A DNA stretch of 64,000 nucleotides from Sphingopyxis sp. (GTDB lineage: Bacteria > Pseudomonadota > Alphaproteobacteria > Sphingomonadales > Sphingomonadaceae): NCBI RefSeq assembly GCF_019459305.1, contig NZ_JAIBES010000008.1, positions 1 through 64,000 of the forward strand, in the 5' to 3' direction. Positions 10,271 through 61,436 of this stretch are shown here, piece after piece. The notes under the pieces are model-generated. The model had not been told where the DNA came from. It did no database searches and saw only the letters and a program-made list of their open reading frames with translations. A program made the position numbers and the translations under genes. How positions within the stretch are numbered: the first letter of the stretch is position 1; every line of letters starts with the position of its first letter.

Positions 10271-10318
10271 CGAACGGCGGGCCAGGAGAGGGGCAGCCAC
10301 CGCCGTCCGTGTCGAAAA

Positions 10319-14077: not shown

Positions 14078-14089
14078 CGAGTATCTCCT

Positions 14090-17495: not shown

Positions 17496-17586
17496 AATGG
17501 GCTCCCGCCCGGACACTGCGTCCGGGTCCGAGCCCTCAAATTCCCATCTAGACTTGCCGGAGGACAGTCGCTGTCGGGGTCGGTGA

Positions 17587-42541: not shown

Positions 42542-42671
42542 CGGTTGAGTGGCCGGGCCCAGCAATGGCCGTTGCACGACCCGCTATCGCGGATTGGCGC
42601 TAGCCTCGACGTAAAGCCGTCCAGCGAGCGCCGCTCCTGATTGAACGTCCGCGGCCATAGGCAGACCCTTT

Positions 42672-42694
42672 CGACTCCTTCAACTGAGGAGTCG
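42672..42694 (+). promoter_or_regulatory. Hairpin sequestering the integrase ribosome site (copy A)
   Basis: CGACTCCT (42672-42679) pairs with AGGAGTCG (42687-42694). The 3' arm contains AGGAG, the Shine-Dalgarno 7 nt before ATG 42699. The same hairpin occurs in copy B with a loop one base longer. Confidence 0.65.
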
Positions 42695-42698
42695 AACG

Positions 42699-43098
42699 AT
42701 GAATGAGCTTATCCAGATTGGCCCGATCAGCCGCTACGTCAGCGCCTGCTCGACGACATGGCGATGCGGCGGTTCGGGCCAGAGACGCAGCGTAATTATC
42801 TGCGCGACGTCGGACGGTTCGCAACCTGGCTGCAGCGCTCTCCCCACACCGCGACCGCCGAGGATATCCGGCAGTTCCAGTTCGAGCAGCTCGAGGCGGG
42901 CGTACCGGCGCCCACGATGAACAGCATCGTTGGCGCGCTTAGGTTCTTCTTCACGCACACGCTCGACCGCCCCGATCTCGCGCGCAAGCTGATCCGCGCC
43001 AAGCAGGTTCGCAAGATCCCCGTCGTCCTGACCATGGCCGAGGTGAAACGGCTGCTCGATGCCACGCGCTGCCTCAACACCAGGATGCACTGTCGGTT
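42699..43098 (+). pseudogene. Truncated, frameshifted tyrosine recombinase (XerC-like)
   Basis: It starts MNELIQIGPISRYVSAC; the frame is lost at codon 12 by a one-base deletion relative to the intact copy at 60523. It continues in another frame as MAMRRFGPETQRNYLRDVG and LDRPDLARKLIRAKQVRKIP up to LLDATRCL. The catalytic domain (R...HxxR...Y) is absent. It is cut at a joint with a peptidase fragment on the opposite strand. Confidence 0.9.
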
Positions 43099-47709: not shown

Positions 47710-48165
47710 CTAACCCGCAGGGTTGGAGAACTGGACCGGCTCATGCCCCGGAATAGTCAGCACCGCCCGATCGGTTTCACACCATAAATGGCCCGTTCCG
47801 CCGCACTCGAGTTTTCCGTAGTCCTCATCGGACACGATCAGGATCGGGATAGCCGCACCATAAAGATAGTCGGCGACCAGCGCGCCGATGGTGAGGATCG
47901 GGTCGCTCCGCGTCGTAATCACCCCGGCGGGTGCCCGCCTGGTCCGCGCGAGTTCGACGAGGGCACTCGAAGAGGAAGAAGAACCCCGGCTTCCTGGCAA
48001 CGCGAGCAGCCGATTGGCGAGCACCGCGCCCCGCTGGGGGTGCGTGGCATCGACGATGCGCCCGGTTTCCAGGTCGACCCCGCCCCACAGGCTCAGTGGC
48101 TCTGTGAGCTTCAGTAAGGCCCCGCTCGCCATTCCCTCGATCAAAGCGTGTCCGTGGGTCAGCAT
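47710..48165 (-). CDS. Aconitase X swivel domain (AcnX small subunit, DUF126)
   Basis: A 151-aa subunit of a two-piece AcnX enzyme. It has the family's serine run SRGSSSSSSALVELARTRRA, which closes over the active site, followed by PAGVITTRSDPILTIGALVA. Bacterial AcnX enzymes dehydrate cis- or trans-3-hydroxy-L-proline to pyrroline-2-carboxylate; archaeal and fungal ones act on related hydroxy acids. It overlaps the large-subunit gene by seven bases, at the end of the six-gene operon. Confidence 0.87.
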   Translation of the reverse strand: MLTHGHALIEGMASGALLKLTEPLSLWGGVDLETGRIVDATHPQRGAVLANRLLALPGSRGSSSSSSALVELARTRRAPAGVITTRSDPILTIGALVADYLYGAAIPILIVSDEDYGKLECGGTGHLWCETDRAVLTIPGHEPVQFSNPAG

Positions 48166-49391
48166 GGCGTCGCCACCGCGCCCGTTTCGGCCGACCGGAT
48201 GCAGCGCTCGAGCGTCATCAGCGCCACGCGCCGCCCCAGATTGCCGGGACCATAATGGGCATATTTTCCCGATGTCGTCAGGATCAGGCCCGACGTCTGG
48301 CGAACCACGGGTGCGAGATAGGTGCAGGTGTCGACGATCATGTTAACGCCAAAGGCGCGCAAGGCGTCAAACGCCGGATTCGCCGCGACCGCGGCCGCGA
48401 TCTCGCGTGAGGTCGATACATAGACCTCGGTCTCCGGCGACCGGCGGCGGCCCTCGACCGCGCGGTTAAGCTGTGCGAATTCGCGGATCGAATAATGCGG
48501 AGTACCGAGACACACCGCCGCGACCACCTCGCCCTCGACCGCGCTGCAAAGGGATGCGATTGCCGCCGCGGGCTCCGTCGGTGCTATAACCTCGATCTTC
48601 ACGCCCTCGGTCGGCATGGCTGCGGCCTCTGGCGTCACGCCTTCGGCATGGAACAGCGCGAGCGCACCCGACGAGGCACCCGTCGCCCCGAGCGCTTTCA
48701 GTTCGTCCTCGCTCGCATCTAGCGGAAGCCCACGCAAGTAGGGGACCATGCCCGGCGCGCGGCGGCCGACGACATAGCCGATCGCCGCGAAATAGAGGTC
48801 GCGCGGCAATCCGGCCGCCCGGACAGAGGGCAGTTCTAACAGAATCTCCGGTCGCCTCGCTTCGTCGCGATGCAGCCCCGCGAGCGGTACGCGTCCGGTC
48901 AACGCCGCGCAGAGGTCGGTGAAATCACCATAACGGTCGGTCCGCGCGCCGAGCACTGAATTGATGAAGACGATCGCATTTGACTCCGCCCACGCGACAT
49001 GCTCGCCGCGCCGCGGACGCGCCATCCGCTGATAGGGCGCGCAGGTGAGCGTCGGTAGGCATCCGAGCTGCTCGTGCAAGCGGGTCAGCGTCTCCTGCTG
49101 CGCGATGATTTCCGGGGGACCACAATGCCAACCGGGGTGGGTGACATCGACCGCGGCGACATTGAGTGTCGTCGGAACACGGACCTTTCCACCGAGATCG
49201 ACAAAATGCCGCGCAAAATCGATACTCGACGGTCCGTGATACAGGCAGCCGTCGATATGCGCCGACTCGATATCAATGAAGCGATCGGCACCGCATGCGG
49301 CGCCGTAACGCACAAGAAACGCCATCGCGCGCGCAGCAGCCGCGCCATGCTCGCCCGCCAGCAGCGCATCGTCGATCGGTTCGAGCTTCAC
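48159..49391 (-). CDS. Aconitase X catalytic subunit (AcnX, DUF521)
   Basis: 410 aa. DUF521 hallmarks are ESAHIDGCLYHGPSSIDFA, KVRVPTTLNVAAVDVTHPGW, NSVLGARTDRYGDF, the cysteine motif NMIVDTCTYLAPV and the C-terminal SGKYAHYGPGNLGRRVAL. These supply the iron-sulphur or metal ligands. Next to an ornithine-cyclodeaminase-family reductase it is best read as 3-hydroxy-L-proline dehydratase, whose product the reductase turns into L-proline. Which isomer it uses is not visible. It shares a four-base overlap with the reductase gene. Confidence 0.88.
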   Translation of the reverse strand: MKLEPIDDALLAGEHGAAAARAMAFLVRYGAACGADRFIDIESAHIDGCLYHGPSSIDFARHFVDLGGKVRVPTTLNVAAVDVTHPGWHCGPPEIIAQQETLTRLHEQLGCLPTLTCAPYQRMARPRRGEHVAWAESNAIVFINSVLGARTDRYGDFTDLCAALTGRVPLAGLHRDEARRPEILLELPSVRAAGLPRDLYFAAIGYVVGRRAPGMVPYLRGLPLDASEDELKALGATGASSGALALFHAEGVTPEAAAMPTEGVKIEVIAPTEPAAAIASLCSAVEGEVVAAVCLGTPHYSIREFAQLNRAVEGRRRSPETEVYVSTSREIAAAVAANPAFDALRAFGVNMIVDTCTYLAPVVRQTSGLILTTSGKYAHYGPGNLGRRVALMTLERCIRSAETGAVATPC

Positions 49392-50329
49392 GGCGCGACA
49401 TCCCCCACGACGAGCTCGGCCGCCGCCAGATCCTCGATCGCGGTGCCCACCGATTTGAACAGGGTGATCGCCTTATCATCCATACCGCGTCCCGGATGCG
49501 CGCCCGAACAAAGCGCCGCGAGATCGGCTTCGATCGCGTCCATGCCGAGCGCGCCCGCAGCGACCGCCTGCTGCAGGTCTCCCGCCTCGTCCATCGCGCC
49601 TTCATGCGTATCGACGAAAACGCGCGCACGAGCGAAGGCCTCGGCATCGGCCTCGCACATGTCAGGGCGGAAGGCGCCGATCAGGTCGATATGCATGCCG
49701 GGCCGCAGGGCCGCGCCCGCGATCAGCGGGTCGGTCGCGAGCGTCGCGGCCGACACAATATCCGCTGCCGCCAATCCCGCCTCAATCGTCGCGATCGCCG
49801 CTGCCGGATAACCCTGCGCGCGCGCGGCGCACGCCGCCGTCTCGGCCTTGTCCGCGTCGCGGCCCCAGACCATGATTTGGTTTATCCCAAAAGCAGAGGA
49901 ATAGGCTTCGATGATCGCCGCATTGAGCGCGCCGGTGCCGATCACGAGCAACGTGTTGGACGCTGGCCGCGCAAGCCGCGATGCCGCAAGAACCGACGCC
50001 GCGGCAGTGCGGCGACGGGTGAGAACAGCGCCGTCGATCGCTGCAATCTGCCGCCCGGACACCCTATCACTCAATATGTAAGTCGACTGGATCGACGGAC
50101 GCGTGCGCGGATCGACGGTGACGATCTTCGTCCCGACCCGCTCGCTCCCCTTCCACGCCGGCATTACGAGCAGCGACGCGCCGCCCATATCGGCGGCAAA
50201 CCGCGACGGCGCATGATATTCGCCGGAGGCAAAGGCGCGCCGCAAGGCCGCGATCAGCGCGGGCATCGGCGTCGCCCGCGCGACCGCTTCAGCGTCGTAA
50301 AAGGGAATTGTCGCCGCCGCCCCGGTCAT
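49388..50329 (-). CDS. Ornithine cyclodeaminase/mu-crystallin family reductase
   Basis: 313 aa. Features are MPALIAALRRAFASGEYHAP, the substrate loop LVMPAWKGSERVGTKIVTV, and AAIDGAVLTRRRTAAASVLA with the catalytic Asp/Lys region. The NAD(P) fold is LLVIGTGALNAAIIEAYSS. Next to AcnX genes, this family is known to act as delta1-pyrroline-2-carboxylate reductase, giving L-proline from 3-hydroxyproline. It overlaps both neighbours by four bases. Confidence 0.88.
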   Translation of the reverse strand: MTGAAATIPFYDAEAVARATPMPALIAALRRAFASGEYHAPSRFAADMGGASLLVMPAWKGSERVGTKIVTVDPRTRPSIQSTYILSDRVSGRQIAAIDGAVLTRRRTAAASVLAASRLARPASNTLLVIGTGALNAAIIEAYSSAFGINQIMVWGRDADKAETAACAARAQGYPAAAIATIEAGLAAADIVSAATLATDPLIAGAALRPGMHIDLIGAFRPDMCEADAEAFARARVFVDTHEGAMDEAGDLQQAVAAGALGMDAIEADLAALCSGAHPGRGMDDKAITLFKSVGTAIEDLAAAELVVGDVAP

Positions 50330-51225
50330 GCGCCAGGAGTTCTGAGCTTCAGCATTTCGCGCGTTTCGGCAGGCGTCGCGACCCCATAGCCGCCGACCGC
50401 GTTGACGAGCGTGTACGCACGCTCGACGAGCTGACCATTGGTCGCCCAGACGCCGCGCGACATGTAGAGATTATCCTCCAGTCCGACACGGATATTGCCG
50501 CCGAGCAGCAGCGTGTGCGCAAGCATCGGCATCTGTTCGCGCCCGATGCCGAATGCGCCCCAGATCGTGCCCGGCGCCATCAGGCTTTTCTGGTACAGGA
50601 TCGTCTCAACGCCGTGCGGGGCCGCCCACTGCACCCCTAGCACCATCTGCATCATCGCCGGGCCGTCGACCAAGCCTTCCTCGACCAGCTTGTTGCCGAA
50701 CAATATGTCGCCGGCTCCGAACACTTCGAGCTCGGGCTTCACCCCCGCGGCCTTGAATCGCTTCGCCATCGCGCGCAGCGTGTGCGTCGGGCTGAAATAG
50801 ATATATTCGGTCGGCCCCTCGACCTGATTGTTCGTGACGATGTCGAGTGTCGCGATTTCGGGAAGCAGTTCCTCGACATGAGCGACCCGCTCGTCGACGC
50901 CGACGACATCGCTCCCGGGCAGCATATGGCCTTCATTCTCCGGGTCGGGAAGGAAATAGGCGCCCATGCCGCAAGTGAGGTTGAGCACGATATCGGTGCC
51001 GGTCTGGCGAACGCGGTCGACGACTTCGCGAAAATGCGCACGGTCGCGATTGCCTTCTCCCGTCTCAGGGTTGCGGACATGGATATGGACGATGCTCGCG
51101 CCCGCAGAGGCCGCCTCGATGCAGGCGTCGGCGATCTGCTTCGGGGTGATCGGCATCGCCGGATGCTTCCTGTTGAAAGGCGCGCCGCCGGTAACGGCGC
51201 AGGTCAGGATCGTCTTTTTGCTCAT
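50326..51225 (-). CDS. BKACE (beta-keto acid cleavage enzyme, DUF849)
   Basis: 299 aa from ATG 51225 (GGGAAG upstream). BKACE enzymes condense a beta-keto acid with acetyl-CoA and split it into acetoacetate and a new acyl-CoA. The zinc ligands are in VHIHVRNPETGEG (HxH) and in PELEVFGAGDILF (Glu). IVLNLTCGMGAYFLPDPE and GNIRVGLEDNLYMSRGVWA bind the substrate carboxylate. Members serve lysine (Kce) and carnitine degradation among others; the pocket residues do not let me choose a substrate. It overlaps the reductase gene by four bases. Confidence 0.9.
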   Translation of the reverse strand: MSKKTILTCAVTGGAPFNRKHPAMPITPKQIADACIEAASAGASIVHIHVRNPETGEGNRDRAHFREVVDRVRQTGTDIVLNLTCGMGAYFLPDPENEGHMLPGSDVVGVDERVAHVEELLPEIATLDIVTNNQVEGPTEYIYFSPTHTLRAMAKRFKAAGVKPELEVFGAGDILFGNKLVEEGLVDGPAMMQMVLGVQWAAPHGVETILYQKSLMAPGTIWGAFGIGREQMPMLAHTLLLGGNIRVGLEDNLYMSRGVWATNGQLVERAYTLVNAVGGYGVATPAETREMLKLRTPGA

Positions 51226-51227
51226 CG

Positions 51228-51986
51228 TCATTCTTCCCATTCCATATTGCCGCTCACGGCGATGATCTCGCCGGTGATTTTCTTGCCGGCGTCTGAGGTG
51301 ATGAATTCAACCATGTCGGCGAACTCGCTGAGTTCGACCTTGCAGCGCAGCGACACATATTTGAGATAGTCGTTTTCGATGTCTTCGAAGCTGCGGCCCG
51401 TCGCATCAACGTTGCGCTGGACGATGAAGCGAAAGCGGTCGTTGTTGATGATGCCGGGCAGGATCGCGTTGACGCGGATGCCCGACGGACCCAGCTCACG
51501 CGCGCTGTTCTTCGTCAGCCCCTCGACCCCCGCCTTCGACGCGATATAGGGCGCGCGGAACGGGATGCCGGTGCGCGTCGAGCAGGTCGAGAAATTGACG
51601 ATCGATCCGCCGCCATTAGCCTTCAGCATCGGGACCGCACGCTTCATCGTGTAAAACATGCCCGACAAATTGACCGCGATGGTCTTGTCCCACTCATCCT
51701 CGTCTAAATCCTCGATCGCGGCGCGCGGACCCGCCATGCCGACGACGTTCACCAGGATCGTGAGGTCGCCAACCTGCGCGCGCACATCGCCGAACAAGGC
51801 TTCGACCTCGGCGCGCACGCCGACGTCAGTGACGCTGCCGCTCATCCCCGGATTGGCTGCAAGCGTTGCGGCGACCGCGTCGCCGCGCACATCGCAGATA
51901 TGCACCTTCGCGCCCTTCTGCAGGAAACGCTCCGCAATCGCGCGACCAACGCTGTCGCCCGCTCCTGTAATCAGCACTCGTTCCAT
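51228..51986 (-). CDS. SDR-family dehydrogenase, probably supplying the beta-keto acid
   Basis: A 252-aa classical SDR. LITGAGDSVGRAIAERFLQ binds NAD, and the NNAG motif is altered to VNVVGMAGP. The active site is FSTCSTRTGIPFRAPYIASK, with Ser and the YxxxK pair intact. The end of the gene lies two bases from the BKACE start. Oxidising a beta-hydroxy acid to the keto acid used by BKACE is the obvious role, as carnitine dehydrogenase does in carnitine degradation, although that enzyme belongs to another family. Confidence 0.9.
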   Translation of the reverse strand: MERVLITGAGDSVGRAIAERFLQKGAKVHICDVRGDAVAATLAANPGMSGSVTDVGVRAEVEALFGDVRAQVGDLTILVNVVGMAGPRAAIEDLDEDEWDKTIAVNLSGMFYTMKRAVPMLKANGGGSIVNFSTCSTRTGIPFRAPYIASKAGVEGLTKNSARELGPSGIRVNAILPGIINNDRFRFIVQRNVDATGRSFEDIENDYLKYVSLRCKVELSEFADMVEFITSDAGKKITGEIIAVSGNMEWEE

Positions 51987-51999
51987 GCAGCCTCCTTGA

Positions 52000-52488
52000 T
52001 CAGATTGTTTGCGCCGGCAGCATCAGCTGCTCGGCGATGCCGCGTTCGCGATCGGACAAGGGCGTCGCCTTGCGCCCGTCGAGGTCGAAACGAACGGTGA
52101 CGCCCTCCAATATCGTGCAGCGTTTACCGTCGGGGCGCCGCGACAATATCGTGCGGTGCCGGAGCGACGAGCGCCCGACCGACAGGATGCCGCCGGCAAG
52201 GACAAGCAAGTCCCCCGCGACCAGTTCGTGAAGATAGCGAATCTCGTGCGAGACATCGGCCCAGCCAACGTTGCGGCCATCGACCTCGCCCGCGGTGAGT
52301 CCGAAATACCCGAGCAGATGGTACACCGCATTGTCCATTAACGGCATCTGGTGCTGGACCGACATGTGCCCCATCGCGTCACAATGCCAAGGGAAGACGA
52401 CTCCGCGGAAGGTCTCTACCGGCACTCTTCCTATTGATTCCAGGGTGTTTTCGGATTTCATCGGGCGCCTTTCCGTTACCGTTCGCAT
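52000..52488 (-). CDS. Hotdog-fold acyl-CoA thioesterase (4HBT)
   Basis: 162 aa (ATG 52488, or MKSENTLESIG nine codons later). VFPWHCDAMGHMSVQHQMPLMD is the 4HBT signature with the catalytic Asp in HCDAMGHM; RYLHELVAGDLLVLAG and SLRHRTILSR follow. It is the first gene of the operon, 14 bp before the SDR. In carnitine operons a 4HBT enzyme hydrolyses betainyl-CoA formed by BKACE, so by analogy it releases the acid from the CoA ester made here. Confidence 0.85.
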   Translation of the reverse strand: MRTVTERRPMKSENTLESIGRVPVETFRGVVFPWHCDAMGHMSVQHQMPLMDNAVYHLLGYFGLTAGEVDGRNVGWADVSHEIRYLHELVAGDLLVLAGGILSVGRSSLRHRTILSRRPDGKRCTILEGVTVRFDLDGRKATPLSDRERGIAEQLMLPAQTI

Positions 52489-52528
52489 CGAGGTAATCGC
52501 CGATGCTTGACTTGTCTACACAGATTAT

Positions 52529-52539
52529 ACACAATGTGT
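52529..52539. promoter_or_regulatory. Palindrome in the divergent promoter (candidate GntR site)
   Basis: ACACAATGTGT is an 11-bp palindrome centred between the catabolic operon and the TonB-receptor gene. A related ATACA..ATGTAT arrangement (60163-60178) precedes the M20/GntR genes, which suggests one regulator for all three transcripts. Confidence 0.4.
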
Positions 52540-52594
52540 TCACTGATTATCCGCACTCTCGTCACAATCCATAAAACGTGCAAAAGGGGATATT

Positions 52595-54721
52595 ATGCGT
52601 AGCAAGCTGAAGACTGGATCGGGCCTCGGGGCACTCGCCGCACTGCTATGGACGGCGCCCGCCTTCGCGCAGACGGCCGACGACGCCGACAAGAGCGGGA
52701 GTGCAAATGAAATCGTGGTGACCGCGCAGAAGCGTGAGGAACGGCTTCAGGATGTTCCGATCTCGATCACCTCGCTCGGCGGCAAGGATCTCGACGCACA
52801 GGCAAGCGGCGGCGTCAGTGAAGCTTTGCGCTCGGTTGCTGGCATTTCGATCACTAGCTCGCCGCAGGGCGGCGGAACTCAGCTTACGATCCGCGGTGTC
52901 GCTGCCAACGGCGCGACCCTCTCAGGCTCCAGCACCTCGGCTTTTTATATCGACTCGGTTCCGTTCGGCCTCGTCAAGTCGGCGATCCTTCCCGACACCA
53001 ACGCCTACGACATGTCGCGGATCGAGGTGCTGCGCGGACCGCAAGGCACGCTTTATGGTGCCAACGCGCTGAACGGCGTCGTTCGCGTGCTCACCAACGA
53101 TGCCAGTCTCGACCGCTTCGAGTTCAAGGCCCGCGCCGGCGTAGCCGCCACCGAAAGCGGAGATCAGAGCTATCGCACCGACATGGCGGTCAACATCCCG
53201 CTGGTTGAAGACAAACTCGGTCTGCGTATCGTCGGCGGTTTCGAAAATGCCGGCGGCTGGATCGACCAGCCGGCGCGCGGCATCAGGAATGCGAACGACA
53301 GCCAGTCGCGCAACATCCGGATCAAGCTCAACGGCCAGCCGACCGACGCGTTCAGCTTCGGCCTGTCGGCATGGATCTCGCGCATCGATCAGGATGCGCC
53401 CGCCTATGCCAATGAAGACGGGAACCAGCTGACCACGGTGCCTCTGCCGCAAAAACTAAACTATGACGCTTTCAGCGCCAAACTTGGCTACGACTTCGGC
53501 GCGTTCCAGGTATCGAGCGCGACGAGCTATCTCAAATTCACCAACCTCAGCGAGCGCGACTATACCAATCTCGCCGCCAATCAGACGCTCCACACTGAAA
53601 TCAGATCGAAGATCTTCACCGAGGAGCTGCTGATCAATTCTTCCGGCGACGGCGACTGGCGCTGGTCGGTCGGCGGCTTTTACCGCGACGCATCCGACCT
53701 TCTGAACCAGACTTTGTTCGTCCTGCCCGCGCCGATCAACTTTAAGGACAAGTCGCGCTCGTTCGCGGCGTTCGGCGAAGTCACGCGCAGCTTCATGGAC
53801 GGCACGCTCGAGGTCACCGGCGGCCTGCGCTACTTCAAGGACCGCGTGACCCAGATCGAGCTGACGCCGACCACGGGCAACCCCGCGCAGCCGCTAGCGC
53901 GCCGCACCGACAGCTTCGAAGCGGTGACCCCGCGCGCGGTGGTCACCTGGCTGCCGAGCCGGCGCTTTACCGCCTATGCCTCCTATTCGCAGGGCTTTCG
54001 CAGCGGCTTCAACCAGAGCCCGACGATCATCCGCACCGCCCCCGGCATCCCGCCGGTCAAGGCTGACCGCCTGTCGAACTATGAAGTTGGCGCAAAAGGC
54101 AGTCTCCTTGGCGGCGCGCTGACCTTCGATGCCGCGGTCTACTATATCGACTGGAAGGATATTCAGCAGAACCTCAACGTCGATATTAATGGCGTCGTCT
54201 TTGCAGCGACGGTCAATGGGCCGAAGGCGAGCGGATTGGGCACCGACCTCTCGTTAACGGCGCATCCGATTGAGGGGCTCGACATCGGCGGCACTTTCAG
54301 CTGGAACGGGCTCGACCTGGCTGGTCCGATCGTGACGCAAACCGCCGGCGGCCCCGTCACTCTGTATCAAAAGGGCGACCGTCTTGCCTTCTCGCCCGAA
54401 TATACGGCGAGCGGCTTCCTCGAGTACCGCTTCCCAATCGGGCAGGCGGGGCTGAAGGGCGTGCTGTCGGGGTCGATGACCTATCGCTCGAAAATTCCTG
54501 CGCGGTTGCTGGCCGCAGGTACCGCGCGCTATTTCCTCAGCGACGAGCCGCTGCTTGCCCGCGCCAGCCTCGGGCTCGAATCGCCCGACAAATGGACCGC
54601 CTCGCTTTATGCCGAGAATATTGGCGGCTGGAACGGCATCACCCAGCCTCCGACGGATATCAGCCAGCAATATCGCGTGCGTCCGCGCACTTTCGGGCTG
54701 CAGTTCGAATTCCGTTATTGA
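52595..54721 (+). CDS. TonB-dependent outer-membrane receptor
   Basis: A 708-aa receptor. The signal peptide is GLGALAALLWTAPAFA-QTA, followed by the sphingomonad plug opening EIVVTAQKREERLQDVPISI. The plug domain runs to about residue 165 (RIEVLRGPQGTLYGANALNG). The beta-barrel follows, with extracellular loops, the TonB-family signature FRSGFNQSP and ending TFGLQFEFRY with terminal aromatic residue. It belongs to the large iron-independent nutrient receptors of sphingomonads. The adjacent peptidase and carrier suggest uptake of a peptide-like or amphiphilic substrate. Confidence 0.93.
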   Translation: MRSKLKTGSGLGALAALLWTAPAFAQTADDADKSGSANEIVVTAQKREERLQDVPISITSLGGKDLDAQASGGVSEALRSVAGISITSSPQGGGTQLTIRGVAANGATLSGSSTSAFYIDSVPFGLVKSAILPDTNAYDMSRIEVLRGPQGTLYGANALNGVVRVLTNDASLDRFEFKARAGVAATESGDQSYRTDMAVNIPLVEDKLGLRIVGGFENAGGWIDQPARGIRNANDSQSRNIRIKLNGQPTDAFSFGLSAWISRIDQDAPAYANEDGNQLTTVPLPQKLNYDAFSAKLGYDFGAFQVSSATSYLKFTNLSERDYTNLAANQTLHTEIRSKIFTEELLINSSGDGDWRWSVGGFYRDASDLLNQTLFVLPAPINFKDKSRSFAAFGEVTRSFMDGTLEVTGGLRYFKDRVTQIELTPTTGNPAQPLARRTDSFEAVTPRAVVTWLPSRRFTAYASYSQGFRSGFNQSPTIIRTAPGIPPVKADRLSNYEVGAKGSLLGGALTFDAAVYYIDWKDIQQNLNVDINGVVFAATVNGPKASGLGTDLSLTAHPIEGLDIGGTFSWNGLDLAGPIVTQTAGGPVTLYQKGDRLAFSPEYTASGFLEYRFPIGQAGLKGVLSGSMTYRSKIPARLLAAGTARYFLSDEPLLARASLGLESPDKWTASLYAENIGGWNGITQPPTDISQQYRVRPRTFGLQFEFRY

Positions 54722-54731
54722 GTCTCTTGTG

Positions 54732-54758
54732 GGGGCCGGATCGCTCCGGCCCCTTTTT
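54732..54758 (+). terminator. Intrinsic terminator between the receptor and peptidase genes
   Basis: A perfect 9-bp stem, GGGGCCGGA (54732-54740) with TCCGGCCCC (54745-54753), has a TCGC tetraloop and a TTTTT tract. It stands only 14 bp before the peptidase start codon, so any transcript covering both must read through it. Confidence 0.85.
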
Positions 54759-54772
54759 CAAAAGGTTTGCCC

Positions 54773-56767
54773 GTGCCCTCCCCGGAAAGCGATCTCCCCT
54801 CCCCCGCAGCCGAAGCGATCGAAGCCCAGGTCCGCGATTATTTCGAGCGCCTCTACCGGCCCGGCACGGGGCAGTTTCATGGGATAGTCCATGTCGCGGC
54901 CAATCCGGCGAGCGGCGTCATCGCCTTTTCGGGCCCGATGATACGCGCCGGCGGCGGCTTCCCGGTCACGCGTATCGGGCTTCTCGCTCCCGACGGCGCG
55001 GTCACGCTTCTCGGCAGCGATACCGCGAACGACAGCCAGCCGAAATGGTCGCCCGACGGTTCCCGTCTCGCCTTTCTGTCCGATCGCGATCATGGGGCGG
55101 GCAACTTCCAGCTGATGATCGCATCGGCCGAAGCCCCCGATGCCGCCTCCGCGCCCGCGCCCATCGCCGGCGAGGCAATCGAGAGTTTCGTCTGGGCTGC
55201 CGACAGCCGTCACTTGCTGCTTCAGAGCGCCGACGCAGGCGCCGATGCCGCCGGATCAGCCGCGACTGCGCGGATCGGGGGCGGTGCCAGCGAACGGCCC
55301 TCATGGATGCCCACCGTCGAAACGGGCAGCCACGACGGCCTGTGGCGCCATGCGCATATCCTCGACATCGAATGCGGAGCGCTCGGGCGCGTCGGTGTTG
55401 ATGGCCAGAATGTCTGGGAGGCCGACTGGTGCGGCCCCGACGCCGTCGTCGCGATCATCTCGGCCAGTCCGACCGAGGGCGGCTGGTACCAGACCGAAAT
55501 CGCGATCGCCCCGGCTGCCGGCGGGGCGTTCGAACGCTTCGCCGCGAGCGAAGTCGAGCTTGCGGGGGTGACGGCCTCGCCCGATGGCAAGACGATCGCG
55601 GTGATCGAGGGACGCTTCCACCGCACCGTCCAGCTCGGCTCGCTCATCCTTTACGACCGCGCGACGGGCGCGCCGCGCGAGCCCGATATCGGCGCGCAGG
55701 TTTCAGCGCTCGCTTGGCGCGATACGAAGCGCCTCTTCTTCACCGGCTTCACCGCTCCCGGATCGATCGCAGGAACCCTGAATATCGCAAGCAACACTGT
55801 AGCGATCGAATGGCGGGCATCGGGCACGGCCGGGCGCAAAGTGCCCTATGCGGTCCCCGAGGGACGCGATGCGGTTCTCGTCCCCGGTCATGCCTTCAAC
55901 CGCTATCCCTATCTCGCGCGTTCGGGTCCGACGGGCGAAGAGTTGCTGCTCGACCTCACCCCGCCCGATCTGGCGCCGATCCAGGCGCGGATGAAGCCGG
56001 CCGAGGTTGTTCGCTGGCAGGGCCGCGATGGGCTCGAAATCCTCGGCTATCTTGCGATGCCTGATGGGGTAGAACGCCCGCCGCTCGTCGCCTTCATCCA
56101 CGGCGGCCCTTCGCACCTGTTCCGCGACAGCTGGACCTTCGACAACCCGCTCGCGGCGTTGCTCGTCAGTTCGGGCTATGCGGTGCTCTTCCCCAATCCG
56201 CGCGGCAGTTCGGGGCGCGGGCTCGATTTCGCGAGCCGCGTAATCGGTGACATGGCGGGCGAGGATGCCTACGACATTCTGGCGGGTATCGACCATGTGA
56301 TCGCCAACCGTCCGGTCGACGGCAGCCGGCTGTTCGTGACCGGGGGCAGCTACGGGGGCTTCATGACGACGTGGCTCGTCGGTCAGACAGGACGCTTCCA
56401 GGCCGCCTGCGCGATCGCGCCGCTGACCGACATGCGCAGCCAGTTTTTCACAGCACATCATCCCGAATTCCTGTCGCTCTATTCGGGCGGCGATCCCTAT
56501 GACGTCGGCGGCGTCTTCGACCAGCGTAGTCCGCTGGCGCATGCGAACAAGGTGACGACCCCGACGCTGCTCATCGCGGGCGAGATGGACAAGACAACGC
56601 CGCCGGCACAGGCGGTGCAGTTCCACCATGCGCTCGTCCTCGGCGATGTGCCGACCAATCTCGTTCTTTATCCCGAAGAGGGCCACGCCGCTGCGCGCTA
56701 CGAGGCTCAGATCGATCAAGGAACCCGCGTGCTGCGCTGGTTCGCACAATGGAAAGATCGCAATTGA
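54773..56767 (+). CDS. S9-family serine peptidase (prolyl oligopeptidase/acylaminoacyl type)
   Basis: 664 aa from GTG 54773 (AAAGG at 7 nt; a TTG six bases earlier has no room for a ribosome site). The N-terminal half is a beta-propeller with TolB-like WSPDGSRLAFLSD units. The C-terminal alpha/beta hydrolase has GGPSHLFRDSWTF (oxyanion region), Ser in VTGGSYGGFMTTWLVGQ (about 525), Asp in AGEMDKTTPPAQ (about 605) and His in YPEEGHAAAR (about 637). No signal peptide is visible, so it probably acts in the cytoplasm on imported peptides; members cleave after proline or remove acylated residues. Confidence 0.91.
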   Translation: MPSPESDLPSPAAEAIEAQVRDYFERLYRPGTGQFHGIVHVAANPASGVIAFSGPMIRAGGGFPVTRIGLLAPDGAVTLLGSDTANDSQPKWSPDGSRLAFLSDRDHGAGNFQLMIASAEAPDAASAPAPIAGEAIESFVWAADSRHLLLQSADAGADAAGSAATARIGGGASERPSWMPTVETGSHDGLWRHAHILDIECGALGRVGVDGQNVWEADWCGPDAVVAIISASPTEGGWYQTEIAIAPAAGGAFERFAASEVELAGVTASPDGKTIAVIEGRFHRTVQLGSLILYDRATGAPREPDIGAQVSALAWRDTKRLFFTGFTAPGSIAGTLNIASNTVAIEWRASGTAGRKVPYAVPEGRDAVLVPGHAFNRYPYLARSGPTGEELLLDLTPPDLAPIQARMKPAEVVRWQGRDGLEILGYLAMPDGVERPPLVAFIHGGPSHLFRDSWTFDNPLAALLVSSGYAVLFPNPRGSSGRGLDFASRVIGDMAGEDAYDILAGIDHVIANRPVDGSRLFVTGGSYGGFMTTWLVGQTGRFQAACAIAPLTDMRSQFFTAHHPEFLSLYSGGDPYDVGGVFDQRSPLAHANKVTTPTLLIAGEMDKTTPPAQAVQFHHALVLGDVPTNLVLYPEEGHAAARYEAQIDQGTRVLRWFAQWKDRN

Positions 56768-58062
56768 GTACGCCCCCTCCACCCGCGGCCGTGCAGGGCG
56801 GCGGCGCGGCGCATCTCTACACCCCCTCCCGGCGCTGGCTGTTCCTCTCCATTCTTTTCTTGGTAGGCGCGTCGAGCTCGATCGACCGCGTTGTCATCTC
56901 GGTGCTGCTCGAACCGATCAAGCAAGAGTTCCAGGTCTCCGACACCCAGCTCGGCCTGCTAAGCGGCCTCTCCTTCGCATTGCTCTATTCGGCGTTCGGT
57001 CTGCCGATCGCGCGCTTTGCCGATCGCGGCAACCGCAAGAAACTGATCGCGGTCGCGATTTCGGTCTGGAGCCTGATGACGGTGCTGTGCGCGGCGGCGG
57101 CCAGCTTCTGGCAGCTGCTGCTCGCCCGCATCGGCGTGGGAGTGGGAGAGGCTGGCGCGACCCCGCCCGCGCAGTCGCTGATCGTCGATTATTTCCCCAC
57201 CGCGCAGCGCGCCCGCGCGATCGGTATCTTTGCGACATCGGGAACGGTCGGCTATCTAATCGGCCTCTCGGCGGGATCGCAGCTCGTCGCGGCCTATGGT
57301 TGGCGTGCGACGCTCGTTGCTTTTGGCCTGCCCGGGCTGCTGATCGCCGCGCTCGTCTACTGGATACTCGACGAACCGCGCCAACGAGCCGACGCCGCAG
57401 TGCGGCGCGGCAGTAGCGAGGATTTTCGCACCTCGGTCGGCCGGCTTGCCGCGAAGCGGTCCTTCGTCCTGATGCTGACCGGCTTCACGCTTTATCATTT
57501 TGCGGCCTATGGCTCACTCGTCTTTGTGCCCTCCTATCTCGTGCGCGTGATCCAAAGTCCGATCGAGCAGGCAGGGCTCTATTATGGCGCGACCTCGGCG
57601 CTCGCGGTGCTGATCGGCAGCCTTGCCGGCGGAGCTATTCATGACGCGCTGTCGCGGCGCGATCCGCGCTGGATCGTCCGTTTTCCGGCCATCGCATTCG
57701 GACTCGCCGCGCTGCCCAATTGCGCGATGTTCCTGATCGACGATCTACTCAGCTTTCTGATTGTCAGCACGATCGGCGGCATTCTGCTCTACGCCGCGCT
57801 ACCCGCCGCCTTCGCCGCGATCCATGCGGTATGCGGCAGCGCGCGCCGCGCTACGGCAATTGCGGTCGTCCTTTTCTTCGGCAATCTGCTGGGCTTTGGC
57901 CTCGGGCCAGTGATCACCGGTGCGCTCAGCGACCATTTCAGCGCGATCCACGGTCCCGAAGGTTTGCGCTATGCACTGATCATCGTGATGGCGCTGACTG
58001 TTCCGACTGCCTACTTCTTTTACCGTGCGAGCGGCAAGGTGGCGGAAGATCAGGAGGATTGA
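56749..58062 (+). CDS. MFS transporter, Spinster-like
   Basis: A 437-aa carrier with twelve predicted membrane helices. It shows LLSGLSFALLYSAFGLPIARFADRGNRKK in pieces (the MFS motif A is GLPIARFADRGNRKK) and ARIGVGVGEAGATPPAQSL, the Spinster/hexuronate-type motif. Central linker: PRQRADAAVRRGSSEDFR. It overlaps the peptidase end by 19 bp if ATG 56749 is the start; a TTG about 15 bases further in with GGAAAG before it is the alternative. It probably carries the imported substrate across the inner membrane. Confidence 0.9.
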   Translation: MERSQLSTPPPPAAVQGGGAAHLYTPSRRWLFLSILFLVGASSSIDRVVISVLLEPIKQEFQVSDTQLGLLSGLSFALLYSAFGLPIARFADRGNRKKLIAVAISVWSLMTVLCAAAASFWQLLLARIGVGVGEAGATPPAQSLIVDYFPTAQRARAIGIFATSGTVGYLIGLSAGSQLVAAYGWRATLVAFGLPGLLIAALVYWILDEPRQRADAAVRRGSSEDFRTSVGRLAAKRSFVLMLTGFTLYHFAAYGSLVFVPSYLVRVIQSPIEQAGLYYGATSALAVLIGSLAGGAIHDALSRRDPRWIVRFPAIAFGLAALPNCAMFLIDDLLSFLIVSTIGGILLYAALPAAFAAIHAVCGSARRATAIAVVLFFGNLLGFGLGPVITGALSDHFSAIHGPEGLRYALIIVMALTVPTAYFFYRASGKVAEDQED

Positions 58063-58078
58063 GGCTGGCGGCTGCGGC

Positions 58079-58837
58079 TCAGCCGCGGCCGGACAGCGAG
58101 AAATCGGCGGTGCTAGAACCGGCGATAAACGTCTTCATCCGTTCGCGAAACTCGTCCGAATGTTCATAGACGAGCCGTTCGGCCTCGGCAGCATCGCCCC
58201 GGCGGATCGCGTCGATCATCTGGTTATGCTGCTCGATGACGTCGGAATAGCTCAGGAGCGCCTCGCCATTCTGGCGAAAAGCGAGCAGCGACAGCCGCAT
58301 GACGCCGCGCAGCATTTTCGAGCAATCGGCGGCAAGGAACTTGTTCCCGCATGCCTGATTGATCGCATCGTGAAAGGCCCAGTTCGCGTCGACGATCTGG
58401 CGCGGATCGCGTGTTTCGCTTGCGACCGCGAATTCGCGGTTGCGCCGTTCGAGCAGGTCGAGATGGTGCGGCTTGCGGCGGAGCGCGGCCCAGCGCGTCG
58501 TGGCGCGTTCATAGAGTTCGAGTGCTTCAAGAACCTGCGGGACCTGATCGAGGTCGAGCGGCGCCACGCGCGCACCGCGGTTCGGTGCCAGCACGACAAG
58601 GCTGTCCGACGCGAGCCGGATCAACGCCTCGCGGATCGGAGTTCGCGAATAGCCGAGCTCGCGGCTGAACTGGACCTCGTCGAGCTCGGTGTTCGGCGCC
58701 AGATCGAGGTTCAGTATCTGCTCGCGCAGCAAGGCATACACCTTCTGCCCCGAGGATTGACGGGCGATCTCGTCGCTTATGTCGGCGACCTCGGCCAGAT
58801 CGTCGGATTTCGCGGGTTTGTTTTGGATTGCGCGCAT
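58079..58837 (-). CDS. GntR-family regulator with FCD domain
   Basis: 252 aa. The winged helix is QKVYALLREQILNLDLAPNT then RELGYSRTPIREALIRLASD, and the C-terminal FCD ligand domain carries metal-binding histidines (NWAFHDAINQACGN, EQHNQMIDAIRRGD, YEHSDEF). FCD regulators usually repress the adjacent catabolic genes until an acid substrate binds. It lies between the convergent MFS gene and the M20 gene, with which it is co-oriented; M20 is upstream by 9 bp, so both share a promoter. Confidence 0.92.
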   Translation of the reverse strand: MRAIQNKPAKSDDLAEVADISDEIARQSSGQKVYALLREQILNLDLAPNTELDEVQFSRELGYSRTPIREALIRLASDSLVVLAPNRGARVAPLDLDQVPQVLEALELYERATTRWAALRRKPHHLDLLERRNREFAVASETRDPRQIVDANWAFHDAINQACGNKFLAADCSKMLRGVMRLSLLAFRQNGEALLSYSDVIEQHNQMIDAIRRGDAAEAERLVYEHSDEFRERMKTFIAGSSTADFSLSGRG

Positions 58838-58846
58838 CGGCTGTCT

Positions 58847-60094
58847 CTACGCTGCATGGGTCATCGCAATCAACCTCGACATGAACCGCGCGCCCGCCTC
58901 GATCTGCGCGATCTCAATATATTCGTCGGGACGATGGGCCTGCACGATCGAACCGGGTCCGCAAATTACCGTCGAGATGCCCGCGATCTGAAACTGCCCC
59001 GCCTCTGCGCCATAGGACACGGCGCCTGCGGGAGCCGCCTCTTCGCACAGCATCGCGGCCAGTTGCTCGGCCGACCCGTCTTCCTCGCGCCGCAGCGGCG
59101 GCACCTGCGCGATCGGGTTGACCTCCACGCCAGTCTCCGCGCCCTCGGCTTTTAGGCGCGTCCGCGCCGTCTCCACGGCCACCCAGAATGGCGCGAGCAC
59201 GGCATCCGCTTCGCGGTCGGGCACCGTGCGCAGGTCAAATGTGAACCGGCATTCGCGCGCGAGGATATTGGCCGCGGTACCGCCGTGAATCGTTCCCACG
59301 GTCAGGGTGGACCAGGGAGGGTCGAAACGCGCGTTGCGATGGCCGGTGCGCTCGCTTTCGGCGATCCGGCCAAGCACGCTCAATATGTCGATCGCGATCA
59401 TGTTCGCTGACACGCCCTCGTGCACCAGGCTCGAATGCGCTTCGCGCCCGGTAACGACGACTTCGTAAAGATGAATCCCCTTGTGGCTGTTGATGATCGC
59501 CATTTCGGTTGGCTCACCGACGATCGCCGCGGCCGGGCGATGTCCTTCAGCCACCAGCGCATTGATCAGGTCGGGCGCGCCGAGGCAGCCGATCTCTTCG
59601 TCATAGGAAAAGGCGAGATGGACCGGGCGCGTCATCTTGCGGGGTGTAAGATAGGGCACCGCAGCGAGCGCGAGCGCGATAAAACTCTTCATGTCGGCGG
59701 TGCCGCGCCCATAGAGCCGTCCTTGATCCTCCACGAGCGTGAAGGGATCGCGGCTCCACGGCTGGCCTTCAACCGGAACTACGTCTGTATGTCCCGAAAG
59801 CACGAGGCCGCGCGCCTCAGCCGGGCCGATCGTCGCGAGCAAATTCGCCTTGCTGCCGTCGGCGTTGTTGATGCGCCGCGCGACGACGCCATGCCCGGCC
59901 AGATAATTCTCGACATATTCGATCAGGGCGAGGTTCGTTGCGCTCGATGTAGTGTCGAACGCGATCAGGCGGGCAAGAATCTCGATCGCCGATGCGGCGA
60001 GAGCCGGCGCAAGATTGTCTCCGTTTTTCGGCGCACGTGTCACCGGCCGCGGCCCTTCTGCAGCTTCAGTGTCGCGAAAGACCGTCACGCGCAT
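58847..60094 (-). CDS. M20-family amidohydrolase (ArgE/DapE-like deacylase)
   Basis: 415 aa from ATG 60094, the start being provisional because the family begins near ALAASAIEILARLIAFDTTS, 30 residues in. Metal ligands are LSGHTDVVPVEG (His), YGRGTADMKSFI (Asp), SYDEEIGCLGAPD (Glu pair), VGEPTEMAIINSHKG and AHRPDEYIEI (C-terminal His). The dimerisation domain follows HLYEVVVTGREAHSS. ArgE-type enzymes remove N-acyl groups from amino acids. It stands outside any arginine genes, beside a GntR regulator and the peptidase/carrier genes, so an N-acyl amino acid or dipeptide from the imported compound is a likelier substrate. Confidence 0.88.
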   Translation of the reverse strand: MRVTVFRDTEAAEGPRPVTRAPKNGDNLAPALAASAIEILARLIAFDTTSSATNLALIEYVENYLAGHGVVARRINNADGSKANLLATIGPAEARGLVLSGHTDVVPVEGQPWSRDPFTLVEDQGRLYGRGTADMKSFIALALAAVPYLTPRKMTRPVHLAFSYDEEIGCLGAPDLINALVAEGHRPAAAIVGEPTEMAIINSHKGIHLYEVVVTGREAHSSLVHEGVSANMIAIDILSVLGRIAESERTGHRNARFDPPWSTLTVGTIHGGTAANILARECRFTFDLRTVPDREADAVLAPFWVAVETARTRLKAEGAETGVEVNPIAQVPPLRREEDGSAEQLAAMLCEEAAPAGAVSYGAEAGQFQIAGISTVICGPGSIVQAHRPDEYIEIAQIEAGARFMSRLIAMTHAA

Positions 60095-60162: not shown

Positions 60163-60190
60163 ATTGTATACATATTGTATTTTTTCTGTC
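60163..60190. promoter_or_regulatory. AT-rich promoter/operator candidate upstream of the M20-GntR genes
   Basis: ATTGTATACATATTGTATTT contains the 8-bp palindrome TGTATACA and is the most AT-rich spot of the region. It lies 70 bp before the M20 start, on the correct side. Its reverse complement (ATACAATATGTATAC) resembles the palindrome at 52529. Confidence 0.4.
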
Positions 60191-60384: not shown

Positions 60385-60925
60385 AATGGTGGCCGCTGCA
60401 CGAACCACTGCGTGGATTGGCGCTGTCATCGATGTAAAGCCATCCAGCGAGCGTCGCATATGATTGAACGTCCGCTGCCATAGGCAGACCCTTTCGACTC
60501 CTTCAACCTGAGGAGTCGAACGATGAATGAGCTTATCCAGATTGGCCCGATCAGCCCGCTACGCCAGCGCCTGCTCGACGACATGGCGATGCGCAGGTTC
60601 GGGCCGGAGACGCAGCGTAATTATCTGCGCGACGTCGGACGGTTCGCGACCTGGCTCGGACGCTCGCCGCACACCGCGAGTGCGGAGGATGTCCGCCAGT
60701 TCCAGATCGATCAGCAGCAAGCGGGCGTTCCGGTGCCGACGATGAACAGCATCGTCAGTGCGCTCCGCTTCTTCTTCACCGAGACGCTCGACCGCCCCGA
60801 TCTCGCGCGCAAGCTGATCCGCGCCAAGCAGGTTCGCAAGATCCCCGTCGTCCTCACCATGGCCGAGGTGAAGCGGCTGCTCGATGCCACGCGCTGCCTC
60901 AAGCACCAGGCTGCACTGTCGGTTG
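60385..60925 (+). repeat. Direct repeat copy B (5' end of the intact integrase)
   Basis: Matches copy A at 42564-43098 with scattered substitutions and one-base differences, from the upstream flank to codon about 134 of the integrase. It is the parent of, or derived from the same element as, copy A. Confidence 0.9.
60495..60518 (+). promoter_or_regulatory. Hairpin sequestering the integrase ribosome site (copy B)
   Basis: CGACTCCT (60495-60502) and AGGAGTCG (60511-60518) form a perfect 8-bp stem with an 8-nt loop. The Shine-Dalgarno AGGAG is inside the 3' arm, four bases from ATG 60523. The stem is kept in copy A, though the loop differs by one base. Confidence 0.65.
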
Positions 60926-61431
60926 CGTACGGCGCCGGGCTGCGCGTCGCCGAGGTCTCAGCGCTCAAGGTCAGCAATATCGACAGCAAACGCATGCTGC
61001 TGCGTGTCGAGCGCGGTAAAGGCGGACGCGACCGCAACGCCATGCTGCCCGAAGGCTTGCTCCTGCTGCTGCGCGACTGGTGGCACGCCGGACGACAGCA
61101 GGGCATTTTGTATCGCGACGGCTGGCTCTTTCCCGGACAGGGCGCAGCGGCCCCGATCAGCACCCGCCAGCTCCACCGCGTCGTCGTCGAGGCGGCTGAG
61201 GCGGCCGATATCGACAAGCGCGTCGGGCCGCACACCTTGCGCCACAGCTTTGCCACCCACCTGCTCGAAGACGGCGTCAACATCCGCGTCATCCAGGCGC
61301 TGCTCGGACACGCCAACCTCAATACCACCGCCTTTTACATGCAGGTCGCAACGAAGACGACGCGTAAGGTGACCAGCCCGCTCGACAGGCTCGCGCTGGC
61401 ATCGCCCATCGAGGAGCCACCCGACGGCTAA
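60523..61431 (+). CDS. Tyrosine recombinase/integrase (XerC-like) of the IS91-type element
   Basis: A 302-aa recombinase. The N-terminal SAM-like domain has ETQRNYLRDVGRFATWLGRS. The catalytic domain has the first Arg in AYGAGLRVAEVSALKV, Lys in RGKGGRDRNAMLP, HTLRHSFATHLLEDG (HxxR), LLGHANLNTTAFYMQV (His/Trp position and nucleophile Tyr). All catalytic residues are present. It is probably translated with the transposase; the two start/stop codons lie six bases apart. Integrases of this group accompany many IS91 transposases, in a role that is not well understood. Confidence 0.92.
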   Translation: MNELIQIGPISPLRQRLLDDMAMRRFGPETQRNYLRDVGRFATWLGRSPHTASAEDVRQFQIDQQQAGVPVPTMNSIVSALRFFFTETLDRPDLARKLIRAKQVRKIPVVLTMAEVKRLLDATRCLKHQAALSVAYGAGLRVAEVSALKVSNIDSKRMLLRVERGKGGRDRNAMLPEGLLLLLRDWWHAGRQQGILYRDGWLFPGQGAAAPISTRQLHRVVVEAAEAADIDKRVGPHTLRHSFATHLLEDGVNIRVIQALLGHANLNTTAFYMQVATKTTRKVTSPLDRLALASPIEEPPDG

Positions 61432-61436
61432 GGCTG

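What the first reader, a model, noticed from the sequence alone, without database searches (positions are those of the whole stretch)
47710..60094. A self-contained uptake-and-dismantling locus combining 3-hydroxyproline and beta-keto-acid chemistry
Seen: a six-gene overlapping operon (AcnX small and large subunit, ornithine-cyclodeaminase-family reductase, BKACE, SDR, 4HBT thioesterase) diverges from a TonB receptor, S9 peptidase and MFS carrier, followed by GntR and an M20 deacylase. Known: AcnX plus this reductase converts 3-hydroxy-L-proline to proline; SDR/dehydrogenase plus BKACE plus thioesterase is the logic of carnitine-type breakdown. Inference: receptor and carrier import an acylated peptide-like molecule, S9 and M20 cut its peptide or amide bonds, and the operon consumes the 3-hydroxyproline and the beta-hydroxy acid released. 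I know of no described pathway with this combination.
Basis: partly seen in the sequence, partly recalled or inferred. Interest (0 to 1): 0.8.

Follow-up and report, generated by a model that had tools for sequence, protein, structure and literature searches.

The report
Candidate hydroxyproline-polyketide (detoxin-type) breakdown locus
A set of eleven bacterial genes, kept together in six related species (ten of the eleven in one of them), looks like a machine for importing a small modified peptide and taking an unusual hydroxyproline part of it apart in five consecutive steps down to ordinary proline, possibly the reverse of how some bacteria build detoxin-type antibiotic antidotes; the substrate is a prediction, not yet shown.

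Summary
In detail: AcnX small and large subunits, an OCD-family reductase, BKACE, SDR and a 4HBT thioesterase form one operon (four overlaps, one 13-nt gap), divergent from TonB receptor, S9 and MFS genes, with GntR and M20 genes beyond. It is no chance assembly: the same set occurs in five other sphingomonad species at 75-86% DNA identity with unrelated AcnX-side flanks; one lacks the reductase. It is rare: the AcnX type is in 5 of 80 genomes of the genus, the BKACE type in 2 of 397 of a family sample. A 27-base promoter block is identical in six of six loci.
The proteins fit one linear route that undoes a polyketide extension of 3-hydroxyproline: SDR oxidises the beta-hydroxyl, BKACE removes two carbons as acetoacetate, the thioesterase frees 3-hydroxyproline, AcnX dehydrates it, the reductase makes proline. 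The one residue I know of that kind is Det of detoxin/rimosamide-type depsipeptides (PMC9503745 passages). I saw no paper joining AcnX with BKACE (listing). Substrate and stereochemistry are unproven; one published set of stereodescriptors may count against detoxin.

The parts
47710..48165 (-). AcnX small subunit (swivel domain)
   Evidence: PF01989 77.3 bits; residues 6-119 align to 24-137 of the AtAcnX chain 7cnp
48159..49391 (-). AcnX large subunit, predicted cis-3-hydroxyproline dehydratase
   Evidence: PF04412 401.8 bits; AtAcnX chains are the best PDB hits, most active-site residues conserved
49388..50329 (-). OCD/mu-crystallin family reductase, predicted delta1-pyrroline-2-carboxylate reductase; missing from the operon of L008
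   Evidence: PF02423 172.6 bits; NF004793 317.8 vs cut-off 322; 6t3e, a Pyr2C reductase, among the PDB hits
50326..51240 (-). BKACE (DUF849) beta-keto acid cleavage enzyme
   Evidence: PF05853 283.6 bits; best PDB hit 3c6c; 91-96% identical in the five other loci
51228..51986 (-). SDR, predicted beta-hydroxy acid dehydrogenase; YIASK (YxxxK) at residue 147
   Evidence: 56.8% to an SDR encoded beside BKACE in Cupriavidus L043; motif
52000..52488 (-). 4HBT_2 thioesterase, predicted 3-hydroxyprolyl-CoA hydrolase
   Evidence: PF13279 47.8 bits; weak match to the carnitine 3-dehydrogenase protein of L060
52505..52531 (.). 27-base block identical in six of six loci in the divergent promoter; holds TGTCTACA (52513-52520), candidate GntR operator, and a sigma70-like first hexamer TTGACT from 52507
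52595..54721 (+). TonB-dependent receptor with apparent Sec signal (by eye)
   Evidence: N-terminus printed
54767..56767 (+). S9 peptidase / acyl-peptide-hydrolase-like enzyme, no evident signal peptide (by eye)
   Evidence: PF00326 152 bits; PDB hits 8wt1 and acyl-peptide hydrolases; GGSYGG from residue 526
56749..58062 (+). MFS transporter
   Evidence: PF07690 168.7 bits
58079..58837 (-). GntR-family regulator with FCD domain
58847..60094 (-). M20 deacylase, ArgE type
   Evidence: TIGR01892 428.3 bits over cut-off 297.7
60165..60172 (.). TGTATACA palindrome upstream of M20-GntR, candidate second GntR operator; also present in L038 and L039, the other loci with enough upstream sequence
   Evidence: TGTMTACA occurs at only two places in the 64-kb window, both in control regions of the unit

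Best explanation
The 11 genes are a transferable catabolic unit. TonB receptor and MFS carrier import a small acylated (depsi)peptide; the S9 hydrolase and the M20 deacylase, which carry no evident export signal, cut its ester/amide bonds inside the cell and release 3-hydroxy-3-(3-hydroxypyrrolidin-2-yl)propanoate or a close analogue (the Det residue of detoxins). The operon then works in line: SDR oxidises the side-chain beta-hydroxyl to a beta-keto acid; BKACE with acetyl-CoA removes two carbons as acetoacetate and leaves 3-hydroxyprolyl-CoA; the 4HBT thioesterase frees cis-3-hydroxyproline; AcnX dehydrates it to delta1-pyrroline-2-carboxylate; the OCD reductase makes proline. GntR controls both transcripts. 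Shown by sequence: gene content, conservation, unit boundaries, enzyme families, AcnX residues, shared promoter motif. Inferred: every substrate, the order of steps and the regulation.
For: Conservation of the set in six species with unrelated AcnX-side flanks. AcnX: 11 of 15 AtAcnX positions identical, two conservative (T72S, I206L), C71S (main-chain contact), no counterpart of C510, the last in line with the two-cysteine type IIa. AcnX relatives at 66-68% identity in four other sphingomonad loci (L009, L010=L041, L011, L040) all have a TonB-receptor hit in the fetched stretch, three of four an OCD hit, and L041 has M2 and M24 peptidase genes, so AcnX in peptide-uptake settings recurs. An SDR-BKACE pair recurs in Cupriavidus L043 (56.8% and 66%). 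Of ten BKACE loci at 54-66% identity whose context I read, seven (L031, L034, L035, L037, L043, L057, L063) carry amino acid permease, amide- or peptide-hydrolase genes, which fits gamma-amino beta-keto acids; three (L032, L033, L058) do not. Det is described as proline with a beta-hydroxyl, extended with malonate, the keto group reduced, the carbinol esterified and the nitrogen acylated (PMC9503745 passages): SDR, BKACE and AcnX are the three chemistries that undo these steps; the residues of rimosamides and detoxins are said there to be L. TGTMTACA: 3 matches at 2 places, both in the unit's control regions; shuffles mean 0.37, 2 of 100 reach 3.
Against: No substrate is shown. L008 (91-92% identical BKACE) lacks the reductase in the operon, although its genome has two other OCD genes. 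[quoted passage not shown] I could not see the numbering figure. No acetoacetate-activating gene lies in the unit. The thioesterase link is weak and its AlphaFold model is unusable (pLDDT 44.2). All six proteins also fit two parallel branches. The cut-off of the fused C3LHyp dehydratase model (700 bits) is not reached by either subunit, and the C3LHyp sites are not all identical. One more distant AcnX relative (L012, 55%, Lysobacterales) lies with 2-oxoacid oxidoreductase and glutamate-synthase-like genes, without a TonB hit. In the BKACE tree the unit's grouping with the amino/amide loci has weak support (0.09-0.23).
Confidence: 0.42

Rival explanations
1. One reading: two parallel branches. 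The imported molecule holds a 3-hydroxyproline residue and, separately, a beta-hydroxy (for example statine-like) acid; AcnX+OCD handle one and SDR+BKACE+thioesterase the other.
For: Each half occurs without the other elsewhere: AcnX relatives in L009-L012 show no hit to the BKACE, SDR or thioesterase query at E 1e-10 within the fetched stretch; SDR+BKACE occurs without AcnX in L043; L008 lost OCD only.
Against: Needs a molecule with two rare residues; does not by itself explain why both halves are together in 6 of 6 loci (these were found through AcnX or BKACE, and no BKACE of 61-91% identity without AcnX turned up in the 397-genome family sample).
Confidence: 0.3
2. Carnitine-type route: SDR is a (D-)carnitine dehydrogenase, BKACE makes betainyl-CoA, the thioesterase gives glycine betaine; AcnX/OCD are an unrelated passenger branch.
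For: Thioesterase matches the annotated carnitine 3-dehydrogenase protein of L060; the sarcosine-oxidase subunit family SoxD is present in 4 of 6 unit-bearing genomes, the window's own included.
Against: BKACE only 49-50% identical to those encoded beside annotated carnitine 3-dehydrogenases and closer to others; no 3HCDH-type dehydrogenase in the unit; peptidases and TonB receptor unexplained; SoxD not found in 2 of 6 genomes, G432 (100% complete) and G445 (91%). Against this: L034, 58.7% identical, does have a 3HCDH-type dehydrogenase beside its BKACE.
Confidence: 0.08
3. Linear route of the same logic, but for another C2-extended 3-hydroxyproline or 3-hydroxy cyclic imino acid compound not yet described, not detoxins.
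For: All sequence evidence for the linear route applies; avoids the possible stereochemical conflict.
Against: I know of no such compound outside the detoxin/rimosamide family (recall).
Confidence: 0.15

Closest known systems
[quoted passage not shown] passages read)
   Same: AcnX plus a Pyr2C reductase ending in proline
   Different: AcnX split in two subunits; no racemase or ABC importer gene in the unit; joined to SDR, BKACE, thioesterase, TonB, S9, MFS and M20
Bacterial carnitine operons (annotated carnitine 3-dehydrogenase + BKACE; A. fabrum pAt, P. denitrificans plasmid, N. capsulatum plasmid)
   Same: dehydrogenase + BKACE logic; the thioesterase step is recalled and suggested by the match; gamma-ammonium beta-keto acid
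   Different: SDR instead of carnitine 3-dehydrogenase; BKACE only 49-50% identical; peptidases and AcnX added
Cupriavidus pinatubonensis SDR-SDR-BKACE plasmid locus (L043)
   Same: closest SDR-BKACE pair found outside the unit (56.8% and 66%)
   Different: with hydantoinase/oxoprolinase genes; no AcnX, 4HBT thioesterase or TonB gene annotated in the stretch
Detoxin/rimosamide-type biosynthesis (miramide, chitinimide, pseudovibriamide, pseudotetraivprolide; passages of PMC9503745, PMC8302735, PMC11796379, PMC12828459)
   Same: the predicted pathway is the chemical reverse of Det assembly (proline hydroxylation, malonate extension, ketoreduction)
   Different: biosynthesis by NRPS-PKS and a TauD-like hydroxylase; a different set of enzymes; I saw no described catabolism

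Membership tests
[quoted passage not shown]
   PF01989 and PF04412 on adjacent genes
[quoted passage not shown]
   11 of 15 identical (W35, S70, D203, N233, C273, E292, S293, N294, C508, K530, Y534); T72S, I206L, C71S; C510 has no counterpart; PDB chain numbers taken as +10
[quoted passage not shown]
   375.6 (large) and 120.3 (small) bits, scored apart
[quoted passage not shown]
   needs an enzyme assay
AcnX type IIa | grouping with characterised type IIa enzymes in a tree | not tested
   sequences of the characterised type IIa enzymes were not fetched
Delta1-pyrroline-2-carboxylate reductase (OCD family) | NCBIfam NF004793 cut-off 322 bits | tested here: not met
   317.8 bits, best of 15 listed models, 4 bits short
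BKACE (PF05853) | Pfam gathering score 24.8 | tested here: met
   283.6 bits
BKACE of the carnitine pathway | encoded with a carnitine 3-dehydrogenase (3HCDH type) | tested here: not met
   no such gene among the eleven; identity 49-50% to BKACEs beside annotated ones
Detoxin-type catabolic pathway (proposed) | ring hydroxyl of Det is cis and the ring L, as AcnX requires | tested here: inconclusive
   stereodescriptors 3'S,4'R,5'R for chitinimide seen in text without the numbering figure; residues of detoxins/rimosamides said to be L

The most novel reading that the evidence does not exclude
The unit is the first catabolic pathway for detoxin/rimosamide-type 'antibiotic antidotes': a retro-biosynthetic operon that unloads the polyketide carbons from Det with BKACE and drains the hydroxyproline through AcnX to proline, so sphingomonads destroy or eat the compounds that protect other bacteria from blasticidin-type antibiotics.
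Probability: 0.27. Interest if true: 0.8.

Novelty: new variant of a known kind. Interest (0 to 1): 0.6.

Why it matters
If the linear route is right, it couples BKACE cleavage to AcnX dehydration in one pathway, gives 3-hydroxyprolyl-CoA as a new metabolic intermediate, and suggests where cis-3-hydroxyproline for some AcnX enzymes comes from; the AcnX papers could name only telomycin as a source of it (PMC5144071 and PMC8184944 passages). If the substrate is a detoxin-type compound, it makes part of the ecology of these antidotes testable: their role is stated to remain unsolved in PMC12828459 (passage).

Tried and rejected
Carnitine as the substrate: rejected as the main reading (BKACE identities, no 3HCDH, peptidases). 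Chance assembly: rejected. BKACE beside an NRPS/PKS gene in Sinorhizobium mexicanum (L057/L062): followed, but ectoine-type genes lie nearby and the S. garamanticum relative lies with CoA-transferase and thiolase genes instead, so not used. Phylum-wide AcnX/BKACE co-occurrence: 37 of 398 genomes have AcnX over the cut-off and 112 of 398 BKACE; apart from the window's own genome, no listed pair lies within 10 kb, the closest being about 23 kb (G759), 50 kb (G014) and 81 kb (G654); the BKACE list was cut at about E 1e-91, which left out even our own BKACE row, so co-occurrence may be missed. AlphaFold of the thioesterase: unusable; no fold search made. Literature on Det stereochemistry: not resolved. 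BKACE subgrouping: PMC4922564 passages gave group names (one for positively charged substrates) but no residues that I could map. Inverted repeats in the divergent promoter: none of 7 nt or more found, so the operator proposal rests on TGTMTACA and conservation alone. The BKACE gene contexts read are a choice: ten of the nearer loci, with L061 (no annotation), L021 of G308 and the many other plasmid hits not read.

Recalled, from no call: the steps of carnitine breakdown beyond the annotations seen; Bastard et al. 2014 (seen only as cited in PMC4922564); that detoxinine is the name of the free acid of Det; the CIP analysis; that no other C2-extended 3-hydroxyproline compound is known to me. 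That L006, L007, L008 and L010 lie in the genomes G445, G411, G253 and G449 is inferred from equal contig lengths and coordinates.
Full report
WHAT IS THERE. Window 47710-60094 encodes eleven genes. Minus strand, in order of transcription: 4HBT_2 thioesterase, SDR, BKACE, OCD reductase, AcnX large, AcnX small; one 13-nt gap, then overlaps of 13, 4, 4 and 7 nt. Plus strand from the same control region: TonB receptor, S9 hydrolase, MFS. Then, minus strand and convergent with the MFS gene, M20 and GntR. The receptor has an apparent Sec signal; S9 and M20 start without one (N-termini printed, judged by eye), so hydrolysis is probably cytoplasmic.

IT IS A UNIT. The search for related loci (84,980 species, exact peptide patterns, close relatives only) gave eight loci: three (L006, L007, L008) hold the set, without OCD in L008; four (L009-L012) hold AcnX relatives in other surroundings; one (L013) is a 36-residue match. 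In the genus, 8 of 80 genomes have an AcnX relative and 5 of 80 (own included) the 81-100% type; L038 and L039 show the full set in two more species. In a family sample, 8 of 397 genomes have a BKACE relative at E 1e-100 and 2 of 397 (own and the genome of L008) one of at least 92% identity. Six species in all. Summed alignments cover 11.3-12.3 kb at 75.4-85.9% identity while the AcnX-side flanks show no similarity, so that edge is sharp; on the other side 116-191 bp of M20 promoter is shared among the three loci compared. SDR and BKACE are the most conserved proteins (90-98% and 91-96%); AcnX large 72-88%, OCD 76-85% where present, thioesterase 68-83%.

CONTROL. The divergent promoter keeps 27 identical bases in 6 of 6 loci although the rest of the L008 intergenic region has drifted. 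It holds TGTCTACA; the M20-GntR promoter holds TGTATACA, also in L038 and L039. TGTMTACA occurs nowhere else in the 64 kb (3 matches at 2 places; shuffles mean 0.37; 2 of 100 shuffles reach 3). The GntR protein is the natural reader, by inference; the repeat finder saw no inverted repeat of 7 nt or more in the divergent promoter.

ENZYMES. AcnX: aligned to the AtAcnX chains (chain numbers 10 higher, inferred from D213/I216 = D203/I206 and checked on the other residues), 11 of 15 positions named in PMC8184944 (passages read) are the same, including E292, S293, N294, K530, Y534, C273 and C508; T72S, I206L and C71S differ and C510 has no counterpart. The paper says that type IIa has only two of the cysteines and all C3LHyp sites; ours fits the first and not wholly the second. 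OCD scores 317.8 against a cut-off of 322 for the Pyr2C/Pip2C reductase model. BKACE scores 283.6 bits to Pfam; the own genome has three more BKACEs at 29-32% identity. In a small FastTree of 23 BKACEs the unit's six proteins form one clade (support 1.0); its grouping with Cupriavidus L043 and Roseovarius L058 has weak support (0.09-0.23), and the proteins beside annotated carnitine 3-dehydrogenases (L056, L059, L060) lie elsewhere. Of the ten nearer BKACE loci whose context I read, seven carry amino acid permeases or amide/peptide hydrolases: L031 and L034 (permease), L035 and L037 (permease, beta-lactamase-fold hydrolase, racemase; L037 by identity to L035), L043 (oxoprolinase), L057/L062 and L063 (amidohydrolase or amidases, M81, dipeptide ABC transporter genes). 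L032 and L033 (aromatic-type genes) and L058 do not. L034 also has a 3HCDH-type dehydrogenase. L061 carried no annotation and was left out.

HOW IT MOST LIKELY WORKS. Carnitine breakdown (recalled) uses dehydrogenase, BKACE and thioesterase to turn a gamma-ammonium beta-hydroxy acid into an amino acid two carbons shorter. If the gamma-ammonium group is the ring nitrogen of a 3-hydroxypyrrolidine, the shorter amino acid is 3-hydroxyproline, which is the AcnX substrate; AcnX and the OCD reductase then give proline. All six gene products then act one after another. The passages of PMC9503745 describe just such a residue: Det, proline with a beta-hydroxyl, extended with a malonate, keto group reduced, carbinol esterified to N-acyl-Phe, nitrogen acylated by Val or Ile, ring hydroxyl acetylated. 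S9 (acyl-peptide-hydrolase-like) and M20 (ArgE type) would remove these groups. Related compounds are made by Streptomyces, Pseudomonas, Chitinimonas and Pseudovibrio (PMC12828459 passages).

DOUBTS. No activity is shown. Two parallel branches remain possible. L008 lacks OCD in the operon, with two other OCD genes in its genome. The stereodescriptors given for chitinimide (3'S,4'R,5'R) might mean a trans, D-like ring; I could not see the numbering; PMC9503745 says the residues of rimosamides and detoxins are L. The thioesterase link to carnitine enzymes is weak (25.9%). The phylum-wide co-occurrence count is incomplete because the listing was cut. An AcnX relative at 55% (L012) sits in a quite different neighbourhood.

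NOVELTY. Among the 14 papers holding at least two of six AcnX/BKACE terms, none lists occurrences of both an AcnX-type and a BKACE-type term (listing only). The six papers holding 'rimosamide' and 'catabol' do not by title concern its breakdown (listing only). The library holds only open-licence PMC papers, so absence from print elsewhere is not claimed. Each family is known; the combination as one route would be new.

SURROUNDINGS. Conjugation genes lie at 6-17.5 kb and an IS91-family transposase plus tyrosine recombinase follow the unit; a truncated copy of the recombinase start lies before it, in the same direction, 17.8 kb away. This fits transfer of the unit between strains but does not prove it.

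On rereading the calls I mended: the tree size (23, not 22), C510 (no counterpart rather than Tyr), the SDR range (to 98%), the G759 distance (23 kb), the OCD cut-off (not met), L010 and L041 as one locus, and added L012, L034 and the L statement of PMC9503745.

Noticed in passing
window 60523-62627 and 42588-43075: IS91-family transposase with tyrosine recombinase right of the unit; a truncated direct copy (88-89% identical) of the recombinase start 17.8 kb to the left, so the unit lies between a partial and a complete copy.
   Followed up: partly
window 6019-17516: Conjugation genes (TrbI, TrbL, VirD4/TraG type) in the same window: plasmid or integrative conjugative element.
   Followed up: no
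L041:8233-18533 (the same locus as L010), with L009, L011 and L040: A second AcnX context in sphingomonads: in L041 AcnX with M24, an esterase, a TauE-like protein, an M2 (angiotensin-converting-enzyme family) peptidase, a cupin regulator, a TonB receptor and an OCD relative; similar gene sizes in L040 and L009, not all scanned.
   Followed up: partly
L043:6285-12909: Cupriavidus hydantoinase/oxoprolinase genes divergent from two SDR genes and BKACE: could open a hydroxylactam to a gamma-amino-beta-hydroxy acid (speculation).
   Followed up: no
L035:5414-11104 and L037:1627-10357: BKACE with SDR, amino acid permease, Asp/Glu-type racemase and beta-lactamase-fold hydrolase, and in L037 a large ORF weakly matching the TonB receptor: another possible uptake-and-cleavage locus.
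   Followed up: no
L062:11712-20882: BKACE divergent from an NRPS/PKS gene in Sinorhizobium mexicanum, with ectoine-type genes nearby.
   Followed up: partly
L012:7937-15365: An AcnX relative (55%) in a Lysobacterales MAG beside 2-oxoacid oxidoreductase gamma-subunit-like and NADPH-glutamate-synthase-like genes.
   Followed up: no
window 18985-20115 and 29568-30734: Two PF06580-type histidine kinases.
   Followed up: no
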